Part shown: piece by piece, positions 2,679 through 60,614 of the stretch
Position numbering within the stretch: the stretch's first letter is position 1
Layout: every line of letters starts with the position of its first letter
DNA from: Gimesia alba
GTDB lineage: Bacteria; Planctomycetota; Planctomycetia; Planctomycetales; Planctomycetaceae
Reading direction: 5' to 3'
Length of the DNA: 64,000 bases
Assembly (NCBI RefSeq): GCF_007744675.1
Contig: NZ_CP036269.1
Span: 5,869,546-5,933,545 of the forward strand
Program-made: the position numbers and the translations under genes
Notes under the pieces: model-generated
What the model saw: the letters and a program-made list of their open reading frames with translations, nothing else
The model's database searches: none
What the model was told of the DNA's origin: nothing

Positions 2679-4049
2679 ATGACAACTTTGGTACGCATCA
2701 ACCAAGGGGCTTTGCTTACCCAACCTGATATACAGCTACAATCACGGTACCACGTCACCGTCCTCTCAAATTTTGCACGTGGTTATGACAAATACAGCCA
2801 CGACTATTCCAAAGCGCGAATTCCGGAAAGTAAATTTACGGACAAATTCCATTTGCTGGAACTCGATCAGATCAATATCGGCGTCGAGAAAAACAACAGG
2901 CTGTTAACCAAACTGAATCTGCCGGGCAATGCATTACTCGTCCTCGAAACACAAGTCGATTCCGACACTCTGTTTGTGACAGAACACACGGGCCTGGGAC
3001 ACTACATCAACGGTGATTCCATTCGCATTCAACGCGTCTACCTGTTAAATCAGGATACGACGCTGTGCGAAATCTCGATCGAGGAAGCAATGGCTCGTTC
3101 GCTCTCCGTTCTGCAGCAAAACTTGCCTCAATATAGCGAACTTATACCCCGCTCTATTTCCTTATTACCAGTTGCCATCGGCTATCAGGCAAAATGTTCG
3201 TTCTGTTTTTCCAAAGCTTCCGCGTCAGTGGAACAAGATAAGGGAACGTTGTTACGGGAACACATCGCAACGCTGATGCAGGCCGCGAAATCACGAGGTG
3301 CACAGCGGGCCGTAATCACCGGTGGAGGCGAACCAACGCTTTACCCCCGTGCTAAACTACTACAATTGATTCGCCTGGCTGCCGACTATTTCCCGCAAAA
3401 AGTCGTGTTGATTACAAACGGTTATCTTCTGACCGAGATGCCCGCGACAGAACGGCTCGCTTTTCTGGAAGAACTTCAGACCGCCGGGCTGACTACACTC
3501 GCCGTCTCTCACCATCATCATGACCTTGAGGTGAACCGGCGAATAATGAGTCTGGACATCGACGTCGCGCGAATCGCGGAAAGTCTTGATCTGAATCCGG
3601 AGCGATTCCCCACGCTTTCCCTGCGTCTGATCTGCGTGTTACAGAAAGGGGGTGTTCAAGACAGAATCGCCATCCAGAATTATCTCAACTGGGCCGCATC
3701 TCTAAACGTGCAGGAAGTCTGCTTCAAAGAGTTATATGTCTCCACCAGTGTCGAGTCCGAGTATTACTCCCGGCCTGCCAACGAGTGGAGCGAAGCACAT
3801 CAGGTGCCACTCCGAGTTCTCTTGGACTATCTGCAAGCGAAAAACTGGAACCAGGTCGGCCAACTCCCCTGGGGTGCGCCCCTTTATGAACGCCACATCA
3901 ATGGTGTCCCGATGAAAGTCGCCGCCTATACCGAACCAAGCCTGCTCTGGGAATTGAGCCAGGGCTTATGTCGTAGCTGGAACATCATGGCCGACGGTCG
4001 CTGTTTAACCTCACTGGAAGATCGCAGGAGTGAAATCGAGATATCATGA
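2679..4049 (+). CDS. Radical SAM-like protein with a substituted first cluster cysteine
   Basis: The protein has 456 aa, with GAGGAGG 7 bases before ATG. An N-terminal domain of ~155 residues of unknown fold precedes a radical SAM barrel. The cluster loop reads Y169-QAK-C173-SF-C176, so the usual CxxxCxxC has Tyr at its first position. GGGEPT at 215-220 matches the SAM-binding GGE motif. The C-terminus holds C431 and C442 in CRSWNIMADGRC, reminiscent of a SPASM/MoaA-like auxiliary region. The gene overlaps the following PLP-enzyme gene by 4 bp (ATGA), so they are translationally coupled. The promoter carries an NrtR-type operator, hinting at NAD metabolism. The reaction is unknown. It could be an inactive homologue, use another ligand for the third iron, or have a non-radical role. 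Confidence 0.75.
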   Translation: MTTLVRINQGALLTQPDIQLQSRYHVTVLSNFARGYDKYSHDYSKARIPESKFTDKFHLLELDQINIGVEKNNRLLTKLNLPGNALLVLETQVDSDTLFVTEHTGLGHYINGDSIRIQRVYLLNQDTTLCEISIEEAMARSLSVLQQNLPQYSELIPRSISLLPVAIGYQAKCSFCFSKASASVEQDKGTLLREHIATLMQAAKSRGAQRAVITGGGEPTLYPRAKLLQLIRLAADYFPQKVVLITNGYLLTEMPATERLAFLEELQTAGLTTLAVSHHHHDLEVNRRIMSLDIDVARIAESLDLNPERFPTLSLRLICVLQKGGVQDRIAIQNYLNWAASLNVQEVCFKELYVSTSVESEYYSRPANEWSEAHQVPLRVLLDYLQAKNWNQVGQLPWGAPLYERHINGVPMKVAAYTEPSLLWELSQGLCRSWNIMADGRCLTSLEDRRSEIEIS

Positions 4050-5014
4050 ATTTTCAGGAATACAGGGCCGCCAAAGAAACGTATCTGAAATCCGAGCCGC
4101 TACGGCTCGACTGTATGAATACACAGAAAGCACTGAGTCATCTTGCTCCCCCAGCAAGCGCAGCGGGAGAAGAATCTTCACTGCAAGAAGCGCTCTCCGT
4201 CTGGCAGGACGTGACCGGATTTAACCTTGATCACCTACACGTCCTCCCCGGAAACGGCGTCCGCGATCTGCTCATGCAACTCGTAAAACAGTTCAAACAG
4301 CAACAGGCCTCTTTCATTTTCCCGCAGGATGTCTATCCCGTTTATCATCAGATTTTAGAGGGTTACCCCTGCCGAACATACCGCACCCTGCCCGACTGGG
4401 AGTTCGATGTTTTAACCTCAATATCGGACCAACGACAAGTTCTGCTGCTGACACAACCGGCGGTCCCTGTAGGACGTTACCTGAATCCACAGGAAACCAC
4501 GGTCCTCATCAACTGGTTAACCGCTGACGAAACTCGCACACTGATCATCGATGCCGCGTATGCTTACGACCCCAATCACAGCATCTACTCACAACTCATC
4601 CAAACCGAGCAATGCATCTGCCTGTTTTCTCTCTCAAAACCCTGGCTGATGCCCGAACGATGGGGTCTCGCGGTCGGCCCCCAAGAGTTACTCGAAAGGC
4701 ATTTGCAACCGCGAGCTGACTTCACCTGCAACTGGGTCGAGACCGTTCGCCAACTCGCCGCACTGCCAGCGCAGCTCCGTTCTGCGTTCAGTGAAGAATG
4801 GCAGCGTCTGACTCCCGCGATTCACAACTTCGCCCCTCACTGGCGACCGCCGCAAGCCGGCTATTATTCGACAGTTAACATTCCCTTTACACAACTCTTA
4901 GAGGAACAGAATGTACTGGGCGTCCCCGCCAGCGTCTTCGGTTCCGACCGGGATGATGTAACAGTCATTTCATGTCTGTTCGCGATTCAAAAACGAAGCC
5001 TCACGCGCGTTTGA
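4046..5014 (+). CDS. PLP-dependent aminotransferase, class I/II fold
   Basis: The protein has 322 aa, short for the family. Motifs in order are PGNGVRDLL (~68-76, cofactor phosphate loop), QPAVPVGRYLNP (~137-148, the NP.NPTG-like region), the D169-A-A-Y172 block that binds the pyridine nitrogen and ring, and SLSK198 with the lysine expected to form the Schiff base. PERWGLAVG follows, like the HisC/CobD 'SK..GL.G.R.GY' block. The start ATG overlaps the radical SAM stop, so the two products probably act in one pathway. The substrate cannot be read from the sequence. The shared NrtR-type operator suggests a link to NAD or pyridine nucleotide supply, which is inference. Confidence 0.8.
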   Translation: MNFQEYRAAKETYLKSEPLRLDCMNTQKALSHLAPPASAAGEESSLQEALSVWQDVTGFNLDHLHVLPGNGVRDLLMQLVKQFKQQQASFIFPQDVYPVYHQILEGYPCRTYRTLPDWEFDVLTSISDQRQVLLLTQPAVPVGRYLNPQETTVLINWLTADETRTLIIDAAYAYDPNHSIYSQLIQTEQCICLFSLSKPWLMPERWGLAVGPQELLERHLQPRADFTCNWVETVRQLAALPAQLRSAFSEEWQRLTPAIHNFAPHWRPPQAGYYSTVNIPFTQLLEEQNVLGVPASVFGSDRDDVTVISCLFAIQKRSLTRV

Positions 5015-5121
5015 AAACATCGACTAGCGTCTCAAATTATTGAAATTAAATGCACGCTCGTTGCCCCTTCCTGCTATACTATCTAAATGTACCCAATCCA
5101 AGGCAGATGAGGGAGATTAAT

Positions 5122-6396
5122 ATGCGATTCTCGCGTATATGGAAATGGTTTCTGATTCCAGTATTAGCCGTCTTTGTACTCTGGGTCGTCATGTACTCGG
5201 AGCACCAGAAGATCGAATTCGCCAAACAACGAATTCGTTCCCAAGGAATAAATGTCACAGAAATCTATCGCTTTAACCCCATCCGCGAGTCAACCTTCAA
5301 ACTGGAATACGTATTTGACACAGAAGAACTCCGGATTTCGCATGTCAATCCTTTTACCTCTCACAGGGCGTCTGATTTTATTGAGGACTTAAAAATACTG
5401 GCACCAGCGATCAGAGGTGTGGAAATCGACGGCGCCGTCTTCACTGACCAGGATATACAAGCCTTGCGTCAAATGCCAAAGTTACGATACCTCAGCCTAA
5501 ACGGTTCTGAATTGACTGAATCGGGAATTGAGGTTTTATCGAGTCTCAAACAACTTGGATCGCTTACCATCTATGAGCTTCGGTTAGCAGACAGCAAGGT
5601 CATCTGGTTACAAAACTGCACAGAATTATGGAAACTCAATCTCGCCAAATCTGAACTCAGTCCTGAAACGTACCAACAATTCGCAGCACTGAAACAACTT
5701 GAGAAGCTTAGTCTGCTCAATTCAAACATTAAATCAACTGACTTGCAATCTCTCACGAACCTTCCCAAATTAGGTGAGCTTACTCTTGCAGGAACACAGG
5801 TGGATGACCAGGCGGCACCCTACCTGAAAAACATGATAGCACTGCACAAGCTGGATCTCAGTAGAACGAATGTCGGAGCCGAAGTATGCAACCAACTTTC
5901 AAACATCAACTTAAAAGAACTTATCCTTGAAAGGACACAGGTAGACGACCGGGTGGCACCTTACCTCAAGAATCTGAAAACGATACAACGATTGAATCTC
6001 AGCAGAACGAACGTCGGAGATGAAGTATGCCGTCAGGTTTCAAAAATCAACAGTTTGCAACTCTTAAACCTGAAGCAGACCCCCATCACAGACAGTGGCG
6101 TTCAGGCACTTCTTGAGGGATGTCCCAATGTAAGATGGGTGAATCTCGACCGATGTCAAATTTCGAGCAACGCGTTTACTGCATCAAACAAGTGGCCAGC
6201 AAACCTGATTGGCCTTAGTCTCAAAGGGACTAAACTGTCAGAAACAGAGTTTCTGCAAATCTATCGCGATCATGACTCTTTAATCTGGGCTTCGTTCGAC
6301 TGGAAAGACTATACAGATCCGGCTTATCAAAAGTTTATCAAAACTGAAAAACCTCGTGTCATGAGTGCCAGAAATAATCAAAAAGAGAACAGCTGA
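5122..6396 (+). CDS. Membrane-anchored leucine-rich-repeat protein
   Basis: I chose ATG at 5122 because GAGGGAGA lies just upstream and the protein then starts MRFSRIWKWF followed by a single hydrophobic segment (~10-27). The rest (424 aa in total) is built from bacterial LRRs of ~24 residues (L..L.L..T.V.D.A...L). It has internally duplicated units at TQVDDQAAPYLKN and TQVDDRVAPYLKN. The predicted topology is an N-terminal anchor with the repeats outside the cytoplasm. It is a paralogue of the LRR gene at 6784. Such proteins usually mediate protein contacts; the partner is unknown. Confidence 0.8.
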   Translation: MRFSRIWKWFLIPVLAVFVLWVVMYSEHQKIEFAKQRIRSQGINVTEIYRFNPIRESTFKLEYVFDTEELRISHVNPFTSHRASDFIEDLKILAPAIRGVEIDGAVFTDQDIQALRQMPKLRYLSLNGSELTESGIEVLSSLKQLGSLTIYELRLADSKVIWLQNCTELWKLNLAKSELSPETYQQFAALKQLEKLSLLNSNIKSTDLQSLTNLPKLGELTLAGTQVDDQAAPYLKNMIALHKLDLSRTNVGAEVCNQLSNINLKELILERTQVDDRVAPYLKNLKTIQRLNLSRTNVGDEVCRQVSKINSLQLLNLKQTPITDSGVQALLEGCPNVRWVNLDRCQISSNAFTASNKWPANLIGLSLKGTKLSETEFLQIYRDHDSLIWASFDWKDYTDPAYQKFIKTEKPRVMSARNNQKENS

Positions 6397-6783: not shown

Positions 6784-7917
6784 GTGAATTTGAAACGACA
6801 ACGCTTCAATAAATGGCATGTGTTACTCGCACTTTTGCTCTGCGGAGGGGCGTCGGCGCTCTTCTTCAAAGAAGACCAGCTTTCACTCGCGAAAGAGCAA
6901 CTCAAGGCCAAAGGATTTACCGTCAAACCATCTTATCGCCGCCGTCGTAATCCCATCGACAGTTCGATACACGATCTCAAAGGATTATTAAAAATCGAAG
7001 AGATCGAAGTTTACCGTTCGGTCTGGTACAAAGAACAGGAAGCCCTGGAAGTCACCGCGGAACTCGAGATACTAGCTCCCTATATTGATCACTTAAGTTG
7101 TGGGACAACGAAAATTCGAGACTGTGATGCACCTATCATCGGTAAAATGCATCAATTGAAACATTTAGAGCTGTATGGCCCGGACTTGAGTAACCGGGGA
7201 GTCTCTCACCTCTGTAACCTGAAAGATCTCGAATGGTTTGTACTCGATGCTCCACAGGTAACTGACGAAGGCCTCAACTGGCTACACCAATGCCATCAAC
7301 TCTGGTGGCTGATCCTGCCTGATGCGAAAATCACGGGGACTACACTCAAACAGATCTCTAACACCTCTGAACTGCTGACATTGGATATCAGCAATACCCT
7401 GGTTGAATCATCGGATCTGCATTACCTGACGGAGCTTCCCAAATTAAGAAGGCTGATTCTTACCGGAACGCAGATCGACGATAGTGCCGGGCGATATTTC
7501 AAAGAAATGACTGGCCTCAGCTCTTTAGTGCTAAAACAAACCAAAGTAGGTGATGATTTCTGCCAGCAGTTGACAGTGCTTCCTAAATTAGAATCTTTGG
7601 AACTTGATGACACATCGATCACCGATCAAGGCGTGCAGACTCTGCTCGCAGGTTGTCCTGAATTGAAAAGGCTTTCGATTCGAAACTGCAATATCTCAGG
7701 CAAAGCCTTTACTGCGGTAAAATCAAGGCCAATCAAACTGGAACAATTATCGGTCACCGGTACAAAATTAACTGGCGAGGAGATATTCAACATCCTGAAT
7801 GATCATGAATCCCTTGAATCGATCGGTTATAATTCCAAAAACATTGATCCCCAAATCGTCAAACAGATCAATTCGATCAGAGAAGCAAGACTGCATCGGA
7901 GTCTATATGGTCAATAA
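6784..7917 (+). CDS. Membrane-anchored leucine-rich-repeat protein
   Basis: The protein has 377 aa and starts at GTG. MNLKRQRFNKW leads into one hydrophobic segment (~12-28). Then come a short linker and LRRs of the same type as in the gene at 5122. Shared blocks include GTQIDDSAGRYFKEM and ITDQGVQTLLAGCPELK, so the two genes arose by duplication. The 3' end overlaps the next gene by 11 bp, indicating an operon of surface-anchored proteins. Function is unknown. Confidence 0.8.
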   Translation: MNLKRQRFNKWHVLLALLLCGGASALFFKEDQLSLAKEQLKAKGFTVKPSYRRRRNPIDSSIHDLKGLLKIEEIEVYRSVWYKEQEALEVTAELEILAPYIDHLSCGTTKIRDCDAPIIGKMHQLKHLELYGPDLSNRGVSHLCNLKDLEWFVLDAPQVTDEGLNWLHQCHQLWWLILPDAKITGTTLKQISNTSELLTLDISNTLVESSDLHYLTELPKLRRLILTGTQIDDSAGRYFKEMTGLSSLVLKQTKVGDDFCQQLTVLPKLESLELDDTSITDQGVQTLLAGCPELKRLSIRNCNISGKAFTAVKSRPIKLEQLSVTGTKLTGEEIFNILNDHESLESIGYNSKNIDPQIVKQINSIREARLHRSLYGQ

Positions 7918-54596: not shown

Positions 54597-55055
54597 ATGT
54601 CAGAACCGGGCCATATCATCAATTTTTACAGCGTGACGGAACCGTACGGGGAGTTCTCCAATTTTGCCGGGTACCCGATTCAGTTGGATGGAAAACGCTG
54701 GCCGACCTCGGAGCATTATTTTCAGGCGATGAAATTCCAAGATGCCTCACATCAGGAAGCAATCCGTCAAGAGAAATCGCCGATGCGGGCAGCACGGATG
54801 GGCCGCGACCGGAAACGTCCGCTTAGAAAAGACTGGGAATCGGTCAAAGACTCCATCATGCGCAAGGCCGTTGTCTGCAAATTTACGCAACACGACGATC
54901 TGCGTGAACTGCTGCTTTCAACGGGCGAGGCGAAGCTGGTGGAGCACACGACGAATGACGCTTACTGGGGAGATGGGGGAGACGGGAGCGGCAAGAACAT
55001 GCTGGGGCGGATACTGGTGGAAGTCCGGGAACAACTTCGGCAGGAGAGCGTGTGA
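54597..55055 (+). CDS. NADAR-family protein (YbiA-like, ADP-ribose glycosidase class)
   Basis: The protein has 152 aa. Family motifs are GEFSNFAGYPIQLDGKRWPT, SEHYFQAMKF, KAVVCKFTQHDDLRELLLSTG and YWGDGGDGSGKNMLGRIL. NADAR proteins cleave N-glycosidic bonds in ADP-ribose-linked compounds; some reverse guanine ADP-ribosylation of DNA or RNA. Others (YbiA/RibX) act on riboflavin precursors. It converges on kptA with 7 bp between stops. Neighbouring NAD salvage genes favour the ADP-ribose role. Confidence 0.9.
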   Translation: MSEPGHIINFYSVTEPYGEFSNFAGYPIQLDGKRWPTSEHYFQAMKFQDASHQEAIRQEKSPMRAARMGRDRKRPLRKDWESVKDSIMRKAVVCKFTQHDDLRELLLSTGEAKLVEHTTNDAYWGDGGDGSGKNMLGRILVEVREQLRQESV

Positions 55056-55062
55056 TGTCCGC

Positions 55063-55608
55063 TCAGGGAAAATCAATATACGCCGCCGGTACACTTTCTG
55101 TCAGCCAGACCTGATTCGGCGTCACAAAAAATTCACAACCCGCCTGATGCATCTCGAGTGACCGGACTCTGAGCAATACCGGCGTCCCGCGCCTGCGCCC
55201 CACAGTGAGGCTGGTCTGCTCATCCACGTGCAGGTGCACATGATGCCGCTGCATTTTCTTGAGTCCTTCACGGGCGATCGAATCCACAAACTCTCGAGGC
55301 GTGCCGTGAAACAGGATCTCAGGTGGGACAGCTGCTTCATACCCCAGATCGATTTTGACCGAATGCCCCTGATTCGCGCGGATACGTGTGCCCGTTTCAT
55401 CAAAGGAAAACCGCTGTTTATCATTCGTCCGCACCACCATCTCCAAAGTGTTGCGCGACATTGATTTGCCGTGTCGCGCCATGGAGGTTAACAGTTCTTC
55501 TACATCAATCCAGCCTGATTCATCCAGGCTGATTCCAATCGTTTCCGGCTGATGCCGGAGCACCAGACTCAGAAACTTACTTTTTCTTCGTACTTCTTTT
55601 TCGTTCAT
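55063..55608 (-). CDS. kptA: RNA 2'-phosphotransferase (Tpt1/KptA)
   Basis: The protein has 181 aa. Motifs are KFLSLVLRHQPETIGISLDESGWIDV (N-terminal winged helix), IRANQGHSVKID, LFHGTPREFVDSIAREG and RHHVHLH with GRRRGTPVLLRV. KptA uses NAD to remove a 2'-phosphate left by RNA ligation, yielding ADP-ribose 1'',2''-cyclic phosphate and nicotinamide. It is the third gene of the nrtR-pncA-kptA operon (52-bp gap), so its expression is predicted to follow NAD status. Nicotinamide released would feed PncA. Confidence 0.95.
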   Translation of the reverse strand: MNEKEVRRKSKFLSLVLRHQPETIGISLDESGWIDVEELLTSMARHGKSMSRNTLEMVVRTNDKQRFSFDETGTRIRANQGHSVKIDLGYEAAVPPEILFHGTPREFVDSIAREGLKKMQRHHVHLHVDEQTSLTVGRRRGTPVLLRVRSLEMHQAGCEFFVTPNQVWLTESVPAAYIDFP

Positions 55609-55660
55609 TCTTCTTTACTCTTCTTTGTTACTAACTTTTCAAAATTCTGTTTTACTTGTA

Positions 55661-56257
55661 TTAGATATGTGCGACACCGGCAGCCTGCATTTCCTCACAG
55701 GCGCGCTGCACATCATCGGGTTTTAAATTCACCCCGCGGCACCCTTCTCGTATCAAGCTGGTCTTCAAACCGAGCTTGATTGCATCGAGGGCCGTATATT
55801 TGACGCAGTAATCTGTAGCCAGCCCCATGATGACAACTTCATCGACGGCGCGTTCTTTTAAATATTCCGCCAGTCCCGTGGAATGCTGATGGCAGTTATT
55901 GAAAAAGCCGCTATAGCTGTCGATATAAGTATCCGTGCCTTTATGGAAGACACGCGTAATACGATCTGCATGCAGATCGGCGTGGAGTTCCGCGCCCGAG
56001 GTTCCCTGCACACAGTGATCGGGCCACAAAACCTGCTCCAGGCCTCTCAACTCAATCACGTCGCCAATCTGTTTGTTATCATGCTGACTGGCAAAGCTCT
56101 GGTGGTTTTCCGGATGCCAATCCTGCGTCGCAACAACGAGTTCAAAACGAGGCATCCACTCATTGGCAACTGAGATGATTTGATCTCCCTCGGAAACAGC
56201 CAGTGCCCCTCCCGGCAGGAAATCATACTGCAGGTCAACCAGAATCAATGCTTTCAT
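55661..56257 (-). CDS. pncA: Nicotinamidase
   Basis: The protein has 198 aa. MKALILVDLQYDFLPGGALAV (catalytic Asp), TQDWHPENHQSFAS (metal-binding Asp/His), LWPDHCVQGTSGAEL, FHKGTDTYIDSYSGF (catalytic Lys) and VIMGLATDYCVKYTALDA (nucleophilic Cys). All catalytic and metal residues are present. It converts nicotinamide to nicotinate for PncB. Gap to nrtR is 29 bp. Confidence 0.96.
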   Translation of the reverse strand: MKALILVDLQYDFLPGGALAVSEGDQIISVANEWMPRFELVVATQDWHPENHQSFASQHDNKQIGDVIELRGLEQVLWPDHCVQGTSGAELHADLHADRITRVFHKGTDTYIDSYSGFFNNCHQHSTGLAEYLKERAVDEVVIMGLATDYCVKYTALDAIKLGLKTSLIREGCRGVNLKPDDVQRACEEMQAAGVAHI

Positions 56258-56286
56258 CGTTCTATCGTTCTGTTTCAGGGTTCATG

Positions 56287-56976
56287 TCAGATCTCGAAGT
56301 GAAATCCCTGTTTGGTCAAACGCCGATACTTGCGGCGATCAAATTTATAGAGTCGAGCCGCTCGATGAGCGACGTCCGTTTCGACTTCATCCAGTTCTAC
56401 CAAAATGCCCATGCTCAGAATTTTTTTGCGGAAGTTTCGTTTATCCAACTGCCGATCCAGAATAACCTCGTACAGATGTTGAATCTGACGCAGTGTAAAT
56501 TTGGCAGGTAGCAATTCAAATCCAATCGGCTGATAGCGAACTTTGCTTCGCAGCCGCTCATGCGCCATCTTCAAGATTTTCGGATGGTCAAACGCAAGCG
56601 ACGGTACATCCTCAATCGCAAACCAGGCCGCGTTTCGGGCATCGGTGGCAGCATGCACGCGGTGATCAGAAAGGTTCACCAGAGCATAATAAGCCACCGT
56701 CACCACACGTTCGCGCGGATCGCGGTCGACATCGCCGATCGTGTAGAGTTGCTCCAGGTAGACATTTTCGATGCCAGTTTCTTCGCTCAATTCACGGCGG
56801 GCCGCTTCTTCAAGCGTTTCTTCCAGACGAACAAAACCGCCGGGTAAAGCCCAGCAACCTTCGAACGGCTCCAGATCACGCTGAATCAGCAGGACCTTCA
56901 AGTCTTCCTCATCCAGACCAAATACGACGCAGTCAACCGTGAGTGCTGCCCGGGGATATTCATAATGATAATTCAT
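56287..56976 (-). CDS. nrtR: NrtR, NAD-metabolism repressor (Nudix domain plus winged helix)
   Basis: ATG 56976 gives 229 aa; an upstream in-frame GTG lies inside the operator. The Nudix domain (~10-140) has a complete Nudix box, [18 protein letters not shown] plus SEETGI, so it may still hydrolyse ADP-ribose-type ligands. The C-terminal ~80 residues form the winged helix typical of NrtR ([34 protein letters not shown]). ADP-ribose is the usual anti-repressor. It heads the nrtR-pncA-kptA operon and probably represses itself. Confidence 0.95.
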
Positions 56977-56987
56977 CTTCAAACCTT

Positions 56988-57006
56988 TAGTGTATATCAC
57001 ACACTA
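56988..57006 (-). promoter_or_regulatory. NrtR-type operator, downstream copy at nrtR
   Basis: TAGTGT-ATATCAC-ACACTA, both arms perfect. It lies just downstream of the -10, in the 5' leader, 11 bases before the nrtR ATG. Confidence 0.8.
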
Positions 57007-57035
57007 TTATTAGTGTCTATACAACACCATGACAA
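57007..57035 (-). promoter_or_regulatory. nrtR promoter with embedded NrtR-type operator
   Basis: On the minus strand -35 TTGTCA (57030-57035) and -10 TAATAA (57007-57012) have a 17-bp spacer. The operator TGGTGT-TGTATAG-ACACTA (57011-57029) fills the spacer and enters the -10 by two bases. The geometry is the same as at 2603-2631. It shares a 23-bp period with the copy at 56988-57006. Confidence 0.8.
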
Positions 57036-57092
57036 CTAAAAAATAAACAGGTTCACAAAAATAACTGATTTTAGCCCAAAAAATAACCAAAA

Positions 57093-59075
57093 TCACAACA
57101 GATCCCGCATATCGCTTAACTCCTGCTCAAATCCACCAGAGAGAATCGGAAAGCGGCACCAGGTTTTCGGATCCAGATTCTCATCGTCCACATGAAACGA
57201 GGGGGCATACCGTTCGCGCTTCCACTGATTACGTGACCAGAGCCGAAAGAATCGCGTAATCCATTCCACCAGTTGAGCAGGCGGGTAGCCTGGAAATTCG
57301 ACCCGCGCCATACGAAACAGATCAACGGGCCCCTGTTTGTCGCGAATCGCGGCTCGCTCGATCCAATCGAGCAGATCGTAGGGCATCAAGTCACCTTCAT
57401 CTGTCTGTTCTGCGTTCTGTGGGCGTAATTCCGCCGTCGGTTCCTGTCGATTGATCAGTTCGAGCACAGGCAGGTTTCCTGTCTCCTCCGGCCCGGTCTC
57501 ACACATCCAGCTCAGCCAACTGCGTAAAAACGCTTTATCGATTCCTGATATTGGCGAGAGTCCGCCGCAGGTATCTCCGTCCATTGTCGTATACCCCACT
57601 GCTGCCTCGGATCGATTGCTGGTCGCTAATAGCAGTGAATCGCGCAAATTGGCAACCATCCACACACCGGGAGCACGGACGCGGGCCTGGATATTCTGGA
57701 GCGCAATATCATCCTCATCCCAGTTGAGATCCCGACCGACTGCTTCCGACACAATTCCCGTATACGCTTCCACGATCGAATCCACATCCAGCCTGAGATA
57801 TTCCGCCCCGATTGCTTCCGCGAGCGAAGCGGCCGCCTGCTCCGTCGTCTCAGAACTGTTACGCGTGGCCTGATAGACGCACGTCAGCAGCCTGGGCATG
57901 ATCTGCTCGGCTGTCTTTAGCTCTGCTAATCCTGCGATATATGCCAGTTTGGACAGAAACTTTTCTGCCCCTAATTCATCCAGCCCCAGTTTCACCAGCA
58001 GCCAAACCAGAACAGCGGCGGCAGCCGAATCCGCGCCACCACTCAGTGAAATCACGAACCCTTTCGCATGGCTCTTTCGCAAGTAATCAAACAGTCCCAG
58101 AGCAATCGTGCGGGTAAACTCTTCTTCTTTGACAGAGGGCCCCTGCTCCCACCCGGGCATTTTGTTCTGAATCGTTTCCGGCTCAATGTCAGCAAAAGCA
58201 AACGGAACGTCCACAGAATTCGCTGCTTGAGGTGTTTGATGCGGTCGAAAGCTCATCAACCGGGCGCGGTTCATGCGTGTAAGATCTACGTCAACGATCG
58301 CTGTCGTGAGCACAACATCGTCAAAGGATAACCGGCGTCCTTCAGCCAGCAACTTTCCGCTACTGGCGATCAGCGCGGCGCCATCATAGATAATCCGTCC
58401 CGCTTCATTGCCGAGCAGATTTGTATAGACATAAGTCACTCCGTAGGCTCGAGAGCTCTCGAGTACCAGTCGACGACGAATCTCCTGCTTGCCAAAGGCA
58501 AAGTGACTGGCACTCGGATTCAAAATAATATCGACGGCCGCCTGTGATAACGCATGCGCGGGGCGATGTGCAGCCCAGGCGTCCTCACAGATTTCAAAAC
58601 CGATCCGCACGCCTTCACAGTCAAAAATCAAATTCCCAAGCGGATAGGACCGGCCCTGAATTTCCACTTCACTCACCTGACTGGATTCCCAGGGCTTGAA
58701 CCAGCGGGGCTCATAATGAATTCCATCACCGGCGAGCTGATTTTTGGCGACAAATCCCATAATCTGTTGATTGGCAATTAGACAGGCACAATTGTAAAGG
58801 GCGCCGCCATGAAACAGGGGAAGCCCCAGTGAAACAACAATTCCTTCTGTCAGCGGAACCAGATCCAGCAACGTGCGTAAAGCCCTTTGCTGAACGTCGA
58901 CTGAGAGAAACGCATCTTCACAACCATAACCTGTGATACACAATTCCGGCAGGCAAACCAGGCTGGCACCCTGATCGCGGGCTAAGGTGATCGCAGATTT
59001 GATGTTGGTTAAATTACCTTCCCAGTCCAATGGGGTTTGATTGAGAACAGCGGTTGCGACTTTGATAAGTTGCAT
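57093..59075 (-). CDS. nadE: Glutamine-dependent NAD+ synthetase
   Basis: The protein has 660 aa. The N-terminal nitrilase-fold glutaminase (~1-290) has SLVCLPELCITGYGCED (catalytic Glu), KNQLAGDG (Lys) and GFEICEDAW (nucleophilic Cys). The synthetase half has the PP-loop ISLSGGADSAAAA and the SNRSEAAVGYTTMDGDTCGG block. It amidates nicotinate adenine dinucleotide to NAD. It is 44 bp after pncB, so the two genes form an operon under an NrtR-type operator. Confidence 0.96.
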   Translation of the reverse strand: MQLIKVATAVLNQTPLDWEGNLTNIKSAITLARDQGASLVCLPELCITGYGCEDAFLSVDVQQRALRTLLDLVPLTEGIVVSLGLPLFHGGALYNCACLIANQQIMGFVAKNQLAGDGIHYEPRWFKPWESSQVSEVEIQGRSYPLGNLIFDCEGVRIGFEICEDAWAAHRPAHALSQAAVDIILNPSASHFAFGKQEIRRRLVLESSRAYGVTYVYTNLLGNEAGRIIYDGAALIASSGKLLAEGRRLSFDDVVLTTAIVDVDLTRMNRARLMSFRPHQTPQAANSVDVPFAFADIEPETIQNKMPGWEQGPSVKEEEFTRTIALGLFDYLRKSHAKGFVISLSGGADSAAAAVLVWLLVKLGLDELGAEKFLSKLAYIAGLAELKTAEQIMPRLLTCVYQATRNSSETTEQAAASLAEAIGAEYLRLDVDSIVEAYTGIVSEAVGRDLNWDEDDIALQNIQARVRAPGVWMVANLRDSLLLATSNRSEAAVGYTTMDGDTCGGLSPISGIDKAFLRSWLSWMCETGPEETGNLPVLELINRQEPTAELRPQNAEQTDEGDLMPYDLLDWIERAAIRDKQGPVDLFRMARVEFPGYPPAQLVEWITRFFRLWSRNQWKRERYAPSFHVDDENLDPKTWCRFPILSGGFEQELSDMRDLL

Positions 59076-59119
59076 TTTCGTGCCAATTCGTTTTCTACAG
59101 TTGAATAATCATGCTTGTA

Positions 59120-60592
59120 TCACAATGGTGTTTGTATGCTGCGTGCCCGATGAATCCACTCGGTTTTTAAATCGTACAACTCCTGCTCTAACCCGACCGG
59201 ATAGGGCTGTGGGTTTTCATGTCGTCGCACTCCCACATGAAACAAGGCAAGCTGCTGCTCGACCCGTTCCCGAATTGTTGTCAGCGATTCATGCCGATAG
59301 ACAATGTCACCGTTGCGAACAACGGGAACCAGCAGATCCACGGCGTTCAGCCCCCCATCCAACGGCTGACGGTTTATCGGATCCAGCGGATCAACCATGA
59401 CTACGGTATCCAAATTCGCGTTGAGTTCATTAAACATCACATCAGCAACGGCTCCGGCTTCATTTTGGAACCGTCTGACTTGCAGCATACCAGGAGTTGA
59501 TGTCTTGATGGCCTGCTCTGACAATTTCAGTTTCGGCTGCCACTCGCCCTTTTCATTTTTGATCGCCCCCAGTTTGTAGACGCCCCCCAGTGCAGGCTGA
59601 TCATACGCAGTCACCAGCTTGGTGCCAACGCCCCAGACAGCAATCGTCGCTCCCTGCGCTTTCAGACTGGTGATAACTGCTTCATCCAGATCGTTACTCG
59701 CAACAATCGCCACACTGGTGAGTCCTGCCGCATCCAGCAGCTGGCGTGCTTCGATACTGAGTTGGGCCAAATCCCCGGAATCAAGACGTATCCCCACCAT
59801 TTCATGACCCGCTTCCCGTAGCCTCAGGCCAACCCGGATTGCGTTTCGCACGCCCTCCAGCGTGTCGTAGGTGTCGACGAGGAACACACAATTATTCGGC
59901 ATCGCGTGAGCGTACTCTTCAAATGCAGAGAGTTCATCATCAAACGACATCACCCAACTGTGTGCGTGGGTGCCTTTGACGGGGATCTCAAATAATTTTC
60001 CCGCCAGCACATTGGAAGTAGCTGCACAACCGCCGATATACGCGGCACGGCTGGCCGCTAAACCGCCATCAATTCCCTGGGCACGTCGGAGTCCGAATTC
60101 CAGCACAGGGTCGCCTCCCGTCGCCGCACAAATTCGCGCGGACTTGGTGGCAATCAACGTCTGAAAGTTAATGAGATTGAGCAGTGCCGTCTCCAGAAGC
60201 TGACACTGCAGAATCGGACCTTTCACACGCACCAAAGGCTCATGCGGAAAGACAACGGTGCCTTCCGGGACAGCATCCAGATCGCAGCTTAATTTCAGTT
60301 CCGATAGATAGGTTAGAAATTCTGTGGCAAATAGCGGTCGACCATCGTTTCCTTCCAGCTGTGAAAGATACTTAATATCCTCAGCGGTGAATCGGAACTG
60401 TTTCAGATAGTCAAATATGTATTCCAGTCCCGCGGCAATCGTATAACCCCCGCGAAACGGGTTGCTTCGAAAGAACAAATGAAACACCGCTTCCCGCTCG
60501 GACCGCCCCGACTTCCAATAGCCTTGAGACATCGTGAGCTGATAAAGATCTGTCAGTAGCGCTAAAGAAGTTTCATAGATATTCGTAAGCAT
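59120..60592 (-). CDS. pncB: Nicotinate phosphoribosyltransferase
   Basis: ATG 60592 has AAGGAG ~7 bases upstream; the product is 490 aa. Motifs include [64 protein letters not shown] (phosphohistidine region) and [13 protein letters not shown]. It makes nicotinate mononucleotide from nicotinate and PRPP. First gene of the pncB-nadE operon. Confidence 0.95.
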
Positions 60593-60614
60593 TGTTGTTT
60601 CTCCTTGAAACACT

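What the first reader, a model, noticed from the sequence alone, without database searches (positions are those of the whole stretch)
2679..5014. Radical SAM protein with Tyr replacing the first cluster Cys, coupled to a PLP enzyme
The loop reads Y-x3-C-x2-C where radical SAM enzymes have C-x3-C-x2-C, while GGGEP is intact. The gene overlaps an aminotransferase-fold gene by 4 bp. Either the enzyme uses a different third iron ligand (for example Cys130 or the C-terminal Cys431/Cys442), or the protein has lost radical chemistry. The pair does not match any pathway I can name.
Basis: partly seen in the sequence, partly recalled or inferred. Interest (0 to 1): 0.72.

Follow-up and report, generated by a model that had tools for sequence, protein, structure and literature searches.

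The report
Broken radical enzyme in NAD-linked cassette
In this bacterium one accessory enzyme has lost a cysteine that every relative compared here keeps for holding an iron-sulfur cluster, most likely a recent crippling mutation in a fading pathway; the intact pathway elsewhere is an apparently undescribed gene cassette that in some bacteria sits in NAD-recycling operons.

Summary
In detail: window 2679-4049 encodes a radical-SAM-like protein with Tyr169 at the first cluster position, intact GGGEP, overlapping a PLP-enzyme gene by 4 bp. A new cluster ligation is not supported. Cys is present in 5 of 5 same-genus orthologues and in 20 of 21 rows compared, the exception being this one (TAT; TGT in the nearest relative). 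C169Y is the only residue identical in the 14 other main-alignment rows that this protein breaks. This genome and its sister G016 lack the operon's third gene, a methyltransferase, which the four other same-genus carriers have; on these two tips the radical SAM and PLP genes show the largest rise in dN/dS of 35 gene groups, stronger in G016, which keeps Cys. Best reading: private loss of radical chemistry under relaxed selection; sequencing error is not excluded. The intact cassette looks new. Its N-terminal domain models as an ADP-ribosyltransferase fold (no sequence-profile support); the PLP enzyme is fused to it in 6 of 6 Gemmataceae-type loci; in 3 of 3 Verrucomicrobia loci it lies in operons with NrtR, ADP-ribosylglycohydrolase, KptA or nicotinate-salvage genes. 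I infer a nucleotide- or ADP-ribose-linked amine-forming pathway; the substrate is unknown.

The parts
2679..4049 (+). Radical-SAM-like protein, 456 aa, degenerate cluster motif YxxxCxxC
   Evidence: AF2 model pLDDT 85.9; fold matches MoaA, GDGT-MAS, viperin over residues 148-456
2736..3137 (+). N-terminal domain (residues 20-153) that models as an ADP-ribosyltransferase fold
   Evidence: own model pLDDT 92.0; VIA Z 8.9 CC0527, 8.5 and 8.2 Tpt1/KptA; Foldseek best E only 9e-3; no sequence-profile support
3183..3185 (+). Codon TAT, Tyr169, at the first cluster-Cys position (TGT in G016, TGC in the four other orthologues)
3321..3335 (+). GGGEP (SAM-binding motif), intact
4046..5014 (+). PLP fold-type I enzyme, HisC-like, 322 aa; family-invariant K198, D169, Y172 kept
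5015..5049 (+). Gap after the PLP gene; four relatives carry the third gene, a class I methyltransferase, at this place, absent here and in sister genome G016
54597..60613 (.). NAD-salvage cluster in the same window (NADAR +; KptA, nicotinamidase, NrtR, NAD synthase, NAPRT -); related to the cassette by context in Verrucomicrobia, not adjacent to it here

Best explanation
The protein descends from an ordinary three-cysteine radical SAM enzyme. In this lineage a single G-to-A change turned the first cluster Cys into Tyr, which very probably abolishes a stable [4Fe-4S] cluster and radical chemistry (inferred from the superfamily, not measured). It happened in an accessory operon (radical SAM + PLP enzyme + methyltransferase) that had lost its methyltransferase, probably in the ancestor shared with G016, and was evolving under relaxed selection. 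The intact cassette most likely acts on a nucleotide- or ADP-ribose-linked substrate: the radical SAM step creates a carbonyl or similar group, the PLP enzyme installs or rearranges an amine, and the methyltransferase N-methylates it, with the N-terminal ART-fold domain binding or using an NAD-derived compound. Shown: the private substitution, the methyltransferase absence, the dN/dS shift, the fused PLP-radical SAM genes, the operons with NAD-salvage genes. Inferred: loss of activity, every chemical step and the substrate. The confidence given is for the first part (loss of function under relaxed selection); I would give the pathway part about 0.3.
For: Cys at this site in 5 of 5 same-genus orthologues and 20 of 21 rows (14 of 15). 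C169Y is the one position where this protein breaks a residue identical in the 14 other rows. Methyltransferase present in 4 of 6 same-genus carriers and without a close homologue in G000 and G016. Codon model on 35 orthologue groups (cassette genes included) in five genomes: dN/dS on the G000+G016 tips is 0.274 against 0.115 for the radical SAM gene and 0.375 against 0.114 for the PLP gene, the two largest likelihood gains (2dlnL 16.0 and 16.1; next 12.6, every other below 7); the G013+G009 tips, which keep the methyltransferase, show no rise in these two genes (p 0.81 and 0.43). Function: PLP and radical SAM parts lie in one ORF in 6 of 6 Gemmataceae-type loci; methyltransferase best NCBIfam hit is the daptide methyltransferase, 102 bits, below its cut-off of 175; ART-fold N-terminal domain; gene orders NrtR-DraG-rSAM-AT-MT-KptA-DraG-PncB-PncA (L015), DraG-DraG-DUF1152-rSAM-AT-MT-KptA (L016), NrtR-DraG-rSAM-AT-MT (L017), with 4-bp overlaps at ten joints and gaps of 225 bp (AT-MT) and about 0.5 kb (NrtR-DraG) in L015.
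Against: dN/dS stays below 1, both ORFs are intact, and the PLP enzyme breaks no residue identical in the other 13 rows, so the locus is not a plain pseudogene. With separate ratios the rise is smaller in the window lineage (0.196 and 0.240) than in G016 (0.471 and 0.742), which keeps Cys. Fused Gemmataceae-type genomes do without the methyltransferase (no match at E 1e-15 in 5 of 6, a partial 4.8e-17 match in the sixth) yet keep the Cys, so losing it need not doom the pathway. A rise in dN/dS can also mean positive selection. The codon model is my own, fixed tree, one start per fit; other genes also show large shifts: p 0.0004 for one other group on these tips, and on the G013+G009 tips falls with 2dlnL 25.6 and 14.6. 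The ART assignment rests on fold comparison alone. In the window's genus the cassette is about 50 kb from the NAD cluster, whose KptA gene is present with or without the cassette.
Confidence: 0.66

Rival explanations
1. Sequencing or assembly error: the strain really has Cys169.
For: One base, one genome; no reads and no second strain could be examined.
Against: The assembly is one contig, 99.97% complete; the change is an isolated substitution, the ORF has no frame break against its orthologues; the gene independently shows relaxed selection. The window genome also lacks the ADP-ribosylglycohydrolase gene that G016, G010 and G013 have in the NAD cluster.
Confidence: 0.13
2. A retained pseudoenzyme: radical chemistry is lost but the protein still works through its ART-fold domain or as partner of the PLP enzyme.
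For: Both ORFs intact, dN/dS below 1, PLP enzyme without breaks at family-invariant positions; the two enzymes are physically fused in 6 of 6 Gemmataceae-type loci.
Against: Nothing seen points to a new constraint; the shift in dN/dS is shared with, and larger in, G016, which keeps Cys.
Confidence: 0.13
3. Altered cluster: Tyr169 or another residue serves as third ligand and the enzyme is active.
For: C173, C176 and GGGEP are kept.
Against: Tyr occurs in 1 of 21 rows; C130 is private to the genome and lies in the N-terminal domain; C431 is Ala in 6 of 15 rows.
Confidence: 0.06

Closest known systems
MoaA / viperin / GDGT-MAS (Tes) radical SAM enzymes
   Same: Core fold: GDGT-MAS Z 20.1 (275 residues, rmsd 3.6), MoaA 19.1 (261, 3.5), viperin-type 17.8 (235, 3.3)
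   Different: 15-20% identity; no NCBIfam cut-off reached; this family has its own N-terminal domain and PLP partner
Daptide pathway (oxidative decarboxylase, aminotransferase, methyltransferase; PMC10036551, passages read)
   Same: Order of an oxidising step, a PLP enzyme and an N-methyltransferase; the methyltransferase is the best NCBIfam hit
   Different: Daptide aminotransferases are compared with class III enzymes and the oxidation is by an alcohol-dehydrogenase-like enzyme with an RRE-bearing partner; here the PLP enzyme is HisC-like and no precursor-like ORF was seen shared beyond sister genomes
Desosamine-type amino-sugar tailoring, DesII radical SAM with aminotransferases and N-methyltransferase (pathway recalled)
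   Same: Same three enzyme kinds; DesII is among the fold matches, Z 14.7
   Different: Sugar aminotransferases of that pathway are another PLP family (recalled); no sugar genes were noticed beside the cassette, but this was not searched for
KptA/Tpt1 and DUF952 ADP-ribosyltransferase-clan proteins
   Same: Fold of the N-terminal domain (CC0527, a DUF952 protein as recalled, Z 8.9; Tpt1/KptA 8.5 to 6.0); invariant H25 on the first strand; both families are in Pfam's ART clan (PMC7955679, passages read)
   Different: No HMM match; fused to a radical SAM core

Membership tests
Radical SAM superfamily | partial TIM barrel core | tested here: met
   Pfam 46.2 bits over a cut-off of 29.5; model and fold matches
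Radical SAM superfamily | three cluster cysteines CxxxCxxC | tested here: not met
   this protein has YxxxCxxC; the 20 other of 21 rows compared have Cys. The family is radical SAM; this member is degenerate
Radical SAM superfamily | GGE-type SAM-binding motif | tested here: met
   GGGEP at 215-219, invariant in 15 of 15
Radical SAM superfamily | reductive cleavage of SAM by a [4Fe-4S] cluster | not testable with these tools
   needs purified protein
PLP fold-type I, class I/II aminotransferases | PLP lysine and pyridine-binding Asp | tested here: met
   K198 and D169 (roles recalled) invariant in 14 of 14; profile matches aminotransferases; a fused homologue hits Pfam Aminotran_1_2 at 39.8 bits, cut-off 19.7
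PLP fold-type I, class I/II aminotransferases | C-terminal Arg that binds the substrate alpha-carboxylate (recalled) | tested here: not met
   no invariant Arg in the C-terminal part of the 14-row alignment; so transaminase activity is not assumed
ADP-ribosyltransferase clan (N-terminal domain) | ART fold | tested here: met
   31 of the 32 rows with Z of 4.0 or more are ART-fold proteins as I recall their classification (row 28, VPA0770, not known to me); the best Z, 8.9, is only a little above the 7 to 8 that the tool gives as typical for models without a clear match; Foldseek best E 9e-3
ADP-ribosyltransferase clan (N-terminal domain) | sequence-profile relation to a known ART family | tested here: not met
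ADP-ribosyltransferase clan (N-terminal domain) | catalytic triad | tested here: inconclusive
   H25 invariant in 15 of 15; the other two positions could not be assigned
Daptide biosynthesis | methyltransferase over the NCBIfam cut-off | tested here: not met
   102.4 and 83.9 bits against 175
Daptide biosynthesis | precursor peptide next to the enzymes | tested here: inconclusive
   gaps at 8 loci hold short frames, none shared beyond pairs of sister genomes; starts were taken loosely and L015, L017 and the Embleya loci were not examined

The most novel reading that the evidence does not exclude
The intact family is a new kind of radical SAM enzyme that carries an ADP-ribosyltransferase-fold domain and, with a fused or adjacent PLP enzyme and an N-methyltransferase, builds or removes an aminated form of an NAD- or ADP-ribose-derived molecule under NrtR control; the window shows this system being dismantled.
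Probability: 0.3. Interest if true: 0.78.

Novelty: new variant of a known kind. Interest (0 to 1): 0.45.

Why it matters
As posed, a natural Tyr-ligated radical SAM cluster would have been remarkable; the comparison shows instead a private substitution, which saves that search. What remains of interest is the intact cassette: an ART-fold domain joined to a radical SAM core, a PLP partner fused to it in some genomes, and a place in operons with NrtR, DraG, KptA, PncA and PncB. It would tie radical chemistry to the NAD and ADP-ribose network, and the L015 operon can be tested directly in a laboratory host.

Tried and rejected
Alternative cluster ligands C130, C431, C442: rejected. RiPP reading (daptide-like): no precursor found in the gaps examined, different aminotransferase class. 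Antiviral reading: only weak hits, to pVip models for the radical SAM protein and to mad2 for the methyltransferase, over the generic domain. Viral homologues: none confirmed in one scan of viral contigs. Two Embleya plasmids carry the radical SAM and PLP genes, unannotated in the held table; in L025 the methyltransferase query matches over only about 50 residues, in L026 not at all. Phylum search with the narrow alignment at E 1e-40: 5 of 392 genomes, all of the window's genus. Literature: ten searches; no listing showed a paper on this cassette. The one paper listed for radical SAM with ADP-ribosylglycohydrolase and aminotransferase (PMC10434189) was not opened. I read passages only of PMC10036551, PMC9503650 (not used in the argument) and PMC7955679. 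The first codon-model run over 35 groups timed out and was repeated with one thread per process. A pattern found nothing because it was written wrongly; one search repeats it. On re-reading the calls I lowered the main confidence from 0.68 to 0.66, because the separate-ratio fit puts more of the dN/dS rise on G016 than on the window lineage.

The genus name Gimesia, used in my notes and in two paper searches, is recalled; no call names the window's genome. Its class includes Zavarzinella formosa and Gemmata sp. IIL30, as G493 and G571 have contig lengths equal to those records.

Full report
Observation. The ORF at 2679-4049 (+, 456 aa) has Tyr169 where radical SAM proteins have the first cluster Cys, keeps C173, C176 and GGGEP, and overlaps the next ORF (4046-5014, 322 aa) by 4 bp. 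It scores 46.2 bits to Pfam Radical_SAM against a cut-off of 29.5. Among the 24 other Radical_SAM loci of the genome, 23 have CxxxCxxC and one has Cx7CxxC, so the missing Cys is exceptional here.

Orthologues. In a search of 40 genomes, the own one included, 6 of the 17 of the window's genus (own included; three of the others are draft genomes of over 800 contigs or under 80% completeness) have the gene. The five besides the window all read GCQAKC. At the codon level the window has TAT, its nearest relative G016 TGT, and the four others TGC. A scan of GTDB genome contigs gave seven more homologues from Verrucomicrobia, Gemmataceae-type planctomycetes, an unplaced bacterium and Agitococcus; records near the window's own may be left out there. 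A class-wide search of 397 genomes found 16 with a match at E 1e-25, 12 of the close family and 4 of a distant one; two Embleya plasmids carry it. Of 21 rows compared, 20 have Cys at the site; the fourth distant hit, L052, has an internal stop and also shows the Cys motif. The window protein breaks exactly one residue that is identical in the 14 other rows of the main alignment, and that is C169. C130 is private, C431 is Ala in 6 of 15 rows, C442 is invariant in 15 of 15.

State of the operon. Four of the six same-genus carriers have a third gene, a class I methyltransferase of 256 to 264 aa that overlaps the PLP gene by 4 to 8 bp. G000 (the window) and G016 lack it and have no close homologue elsewhere: best E 9.7e-12 and 4.5e-12, the level of other methyltransferases in the genus, against 1e-154 or better in the four carriers. 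Both have the same downstream gene in its place. Two relatives without the cassette, G001 and G005, run straight from the gene before it to the gene after it (six such relatives were fetched, and in the other four the flanks differ more), and G003 has the cassette at another place. It is an accessory cassette.

Selection. With my own codon model on six genomes the G000 and G016 tips together have dN/dS 0.286 against 0.111 for the radical SAM gene and 0.375 against 0.129 for the PLP gene; fitted separately, G000 has 0.196 and 0.240 and G016 0.471 and 0.742. As control, 35 orthologue groups (the two cassette genes included) from 78 kb around the locus were fitted in five genomes. The two cassette genes have the largest gains in likelihood for a raised ratio on these tips (2dlnL 16.0 and 16.1); one other gene reaches 12.6 with a smaller rise (0.178 against 0.096), and no other exceeds 7. 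The G013 and G009 tips, whose cassettes are complete, show no rise in either gene, though on those tips two other genes show large falls (2dlnL 25.6 and 14.6), so single tests of this kind swing widely (first eight genes). This fits relaxed selection that began before C169Y, since G016 shows it, and more strongly, while still having Cys. Ratios below 1 and intact ORFs mean that decay, if that is what it is, is recent or partial; positive selection is not excluded. The tree supports G000 with G016 (99/95) and G013 with G009 (94/88), and leaves the places of G010 and G003 open.

What the intact proteins are. AlphaFold2 gives a confident model (pLDDT 85.9; residues 161-190, the cluster loop, 61 to 74). 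The core matches GDGT-MAS, MoaA and viperin (Z 20.1, 19.1, 17.8). The N-terminal domain, predicted alone (pLDDT 92.0), matches almost only proteins that I recall as ADP-ribosyltransferase-fold: CC0527 (DUF952, recalled) Z 8.9, Tpt1/KptA 8.5 and 8.2, then further ART proteins down to Z 4. DUF952 and PTS_2-RNA (the KptA family) are both in Pfam's ART clan (PMC7955679, passages). Against this, Foldseek's best E-value is 9e-3, and no sequence profile supports it: no PDB sequence match up to E 10, no Pfam ART family in any of 13 members, no hhalign support against KptA. The PLP enzyme family keeps K198, D169 and Y172 in 14 of 14 rows but has no invariant Arg in the C-terminal region, so ordinary amino-acid transamination should not be taken for granted. 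In 6 of 6 Gemmataceae-type loci it is in one ORF with the radical SAM protein, strong evidence that the two work together; 5 of those 6 genomes have no methyltransferase match at E 1e-15 and the sixth only a partial one at 4.8e-17. The methyltransferase resembles the daptide methyltransferase model most (102 bits, cut-off 175).

Context. In 3 of 3 Verrucomicrobia loci the cassette lies among NAD and ADP-ribose genes on one strand: L015 NrtR, DraG, rSAM, AT, MT, KptA, DraG, PncB, PncA; L016 DraG, DraG, DUF1152, rSAM, AT, MT, KptA; L017 NrtR, DraG, rSAM, AT, MT, with 4-bp overlaps at ten joints and, in L015, gaps of 225 bp before MT and about 0.5 kb after NrtR. PncB and PncA of L015 were named by similarity to the window's own. 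A DraG gene also lies near the fused gene in 3 of the 6 Gemmataceae-type loci, three closely related genomes. The other three Gemmataceae-type loci, Agitococcus and the two Embleya loci show none in the stretches examined, and in the window's genus none of the DraG genes lies near the cassette. The window itself carries an NAD-salvage cluster at 54597-60613, about 50 kb away; its KptA gene is present in 5 of 6 cassette-negative relatives searched too, so the distance means little. G016, G010 and G013 have a DraG gene between nicotinamidase and NrtR; the window genome does not. That loss in the same lineage is suggestive but a single case.

Mechanism. Best reading: a nucleotide-linked amine-forming pathway, by analogy with oxidation, PLP step and N-methylation in daptides (PMC10036551, passages) and with desosamine tailoring (recalled). 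The step order, substrate and product are inferred. In the window strain the radical step is very probably dead, which is inferred and not measured.

Verdict. The finding as worded (Tyr in place of the cluster Cys as a possible new ligation) is best explained by a private substitution. The cassette behind it was met in none of the ten literature searches listed in Tried and rejected and deserves the attention.

Noticed in passing
window 54597-60613: NAD-salvage cluster NADAR, KptA, nicotinamidase, NrtR, NAD synthase, NAPRT; the ADP-ribosylglycohydrolase gene that three relatives have between nicotinamidase and NrtR is missing here.
   Followed up: partly
L107 2827-3368 (G010): KptA of this relative matches in two overlapping pieces, so it looks frameshifted.
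   Followed up: no
window 5050-6396 and 6784-7917: Two similar leucine-rich-repeat-like ORFs (name recalled) next to the cassette; the first occupies the place of the methyltransferase gene in this genome and G016.
   Followed up: no
L049-L052: A distant radical SAM subfamily (canonical Cys, no N-terminal domain in the three intact members) with three unknown neighbours shared by L049, L050 and L052, one with a DVSGS motif as in vWA domains (recalled).
   Followed up: no
L100 (G000:C1:3532896-3533513): Radical SAM locus with Cx7CxxC spacing instead of CxxxCxxC.
   Followed up: no
L025 17333-17821: Embleya plasmid: the cassette's methyltransferase matches only over about 50 residues, as if truncated or replaced; none found beside the genes in L026.
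   Followed up: partly
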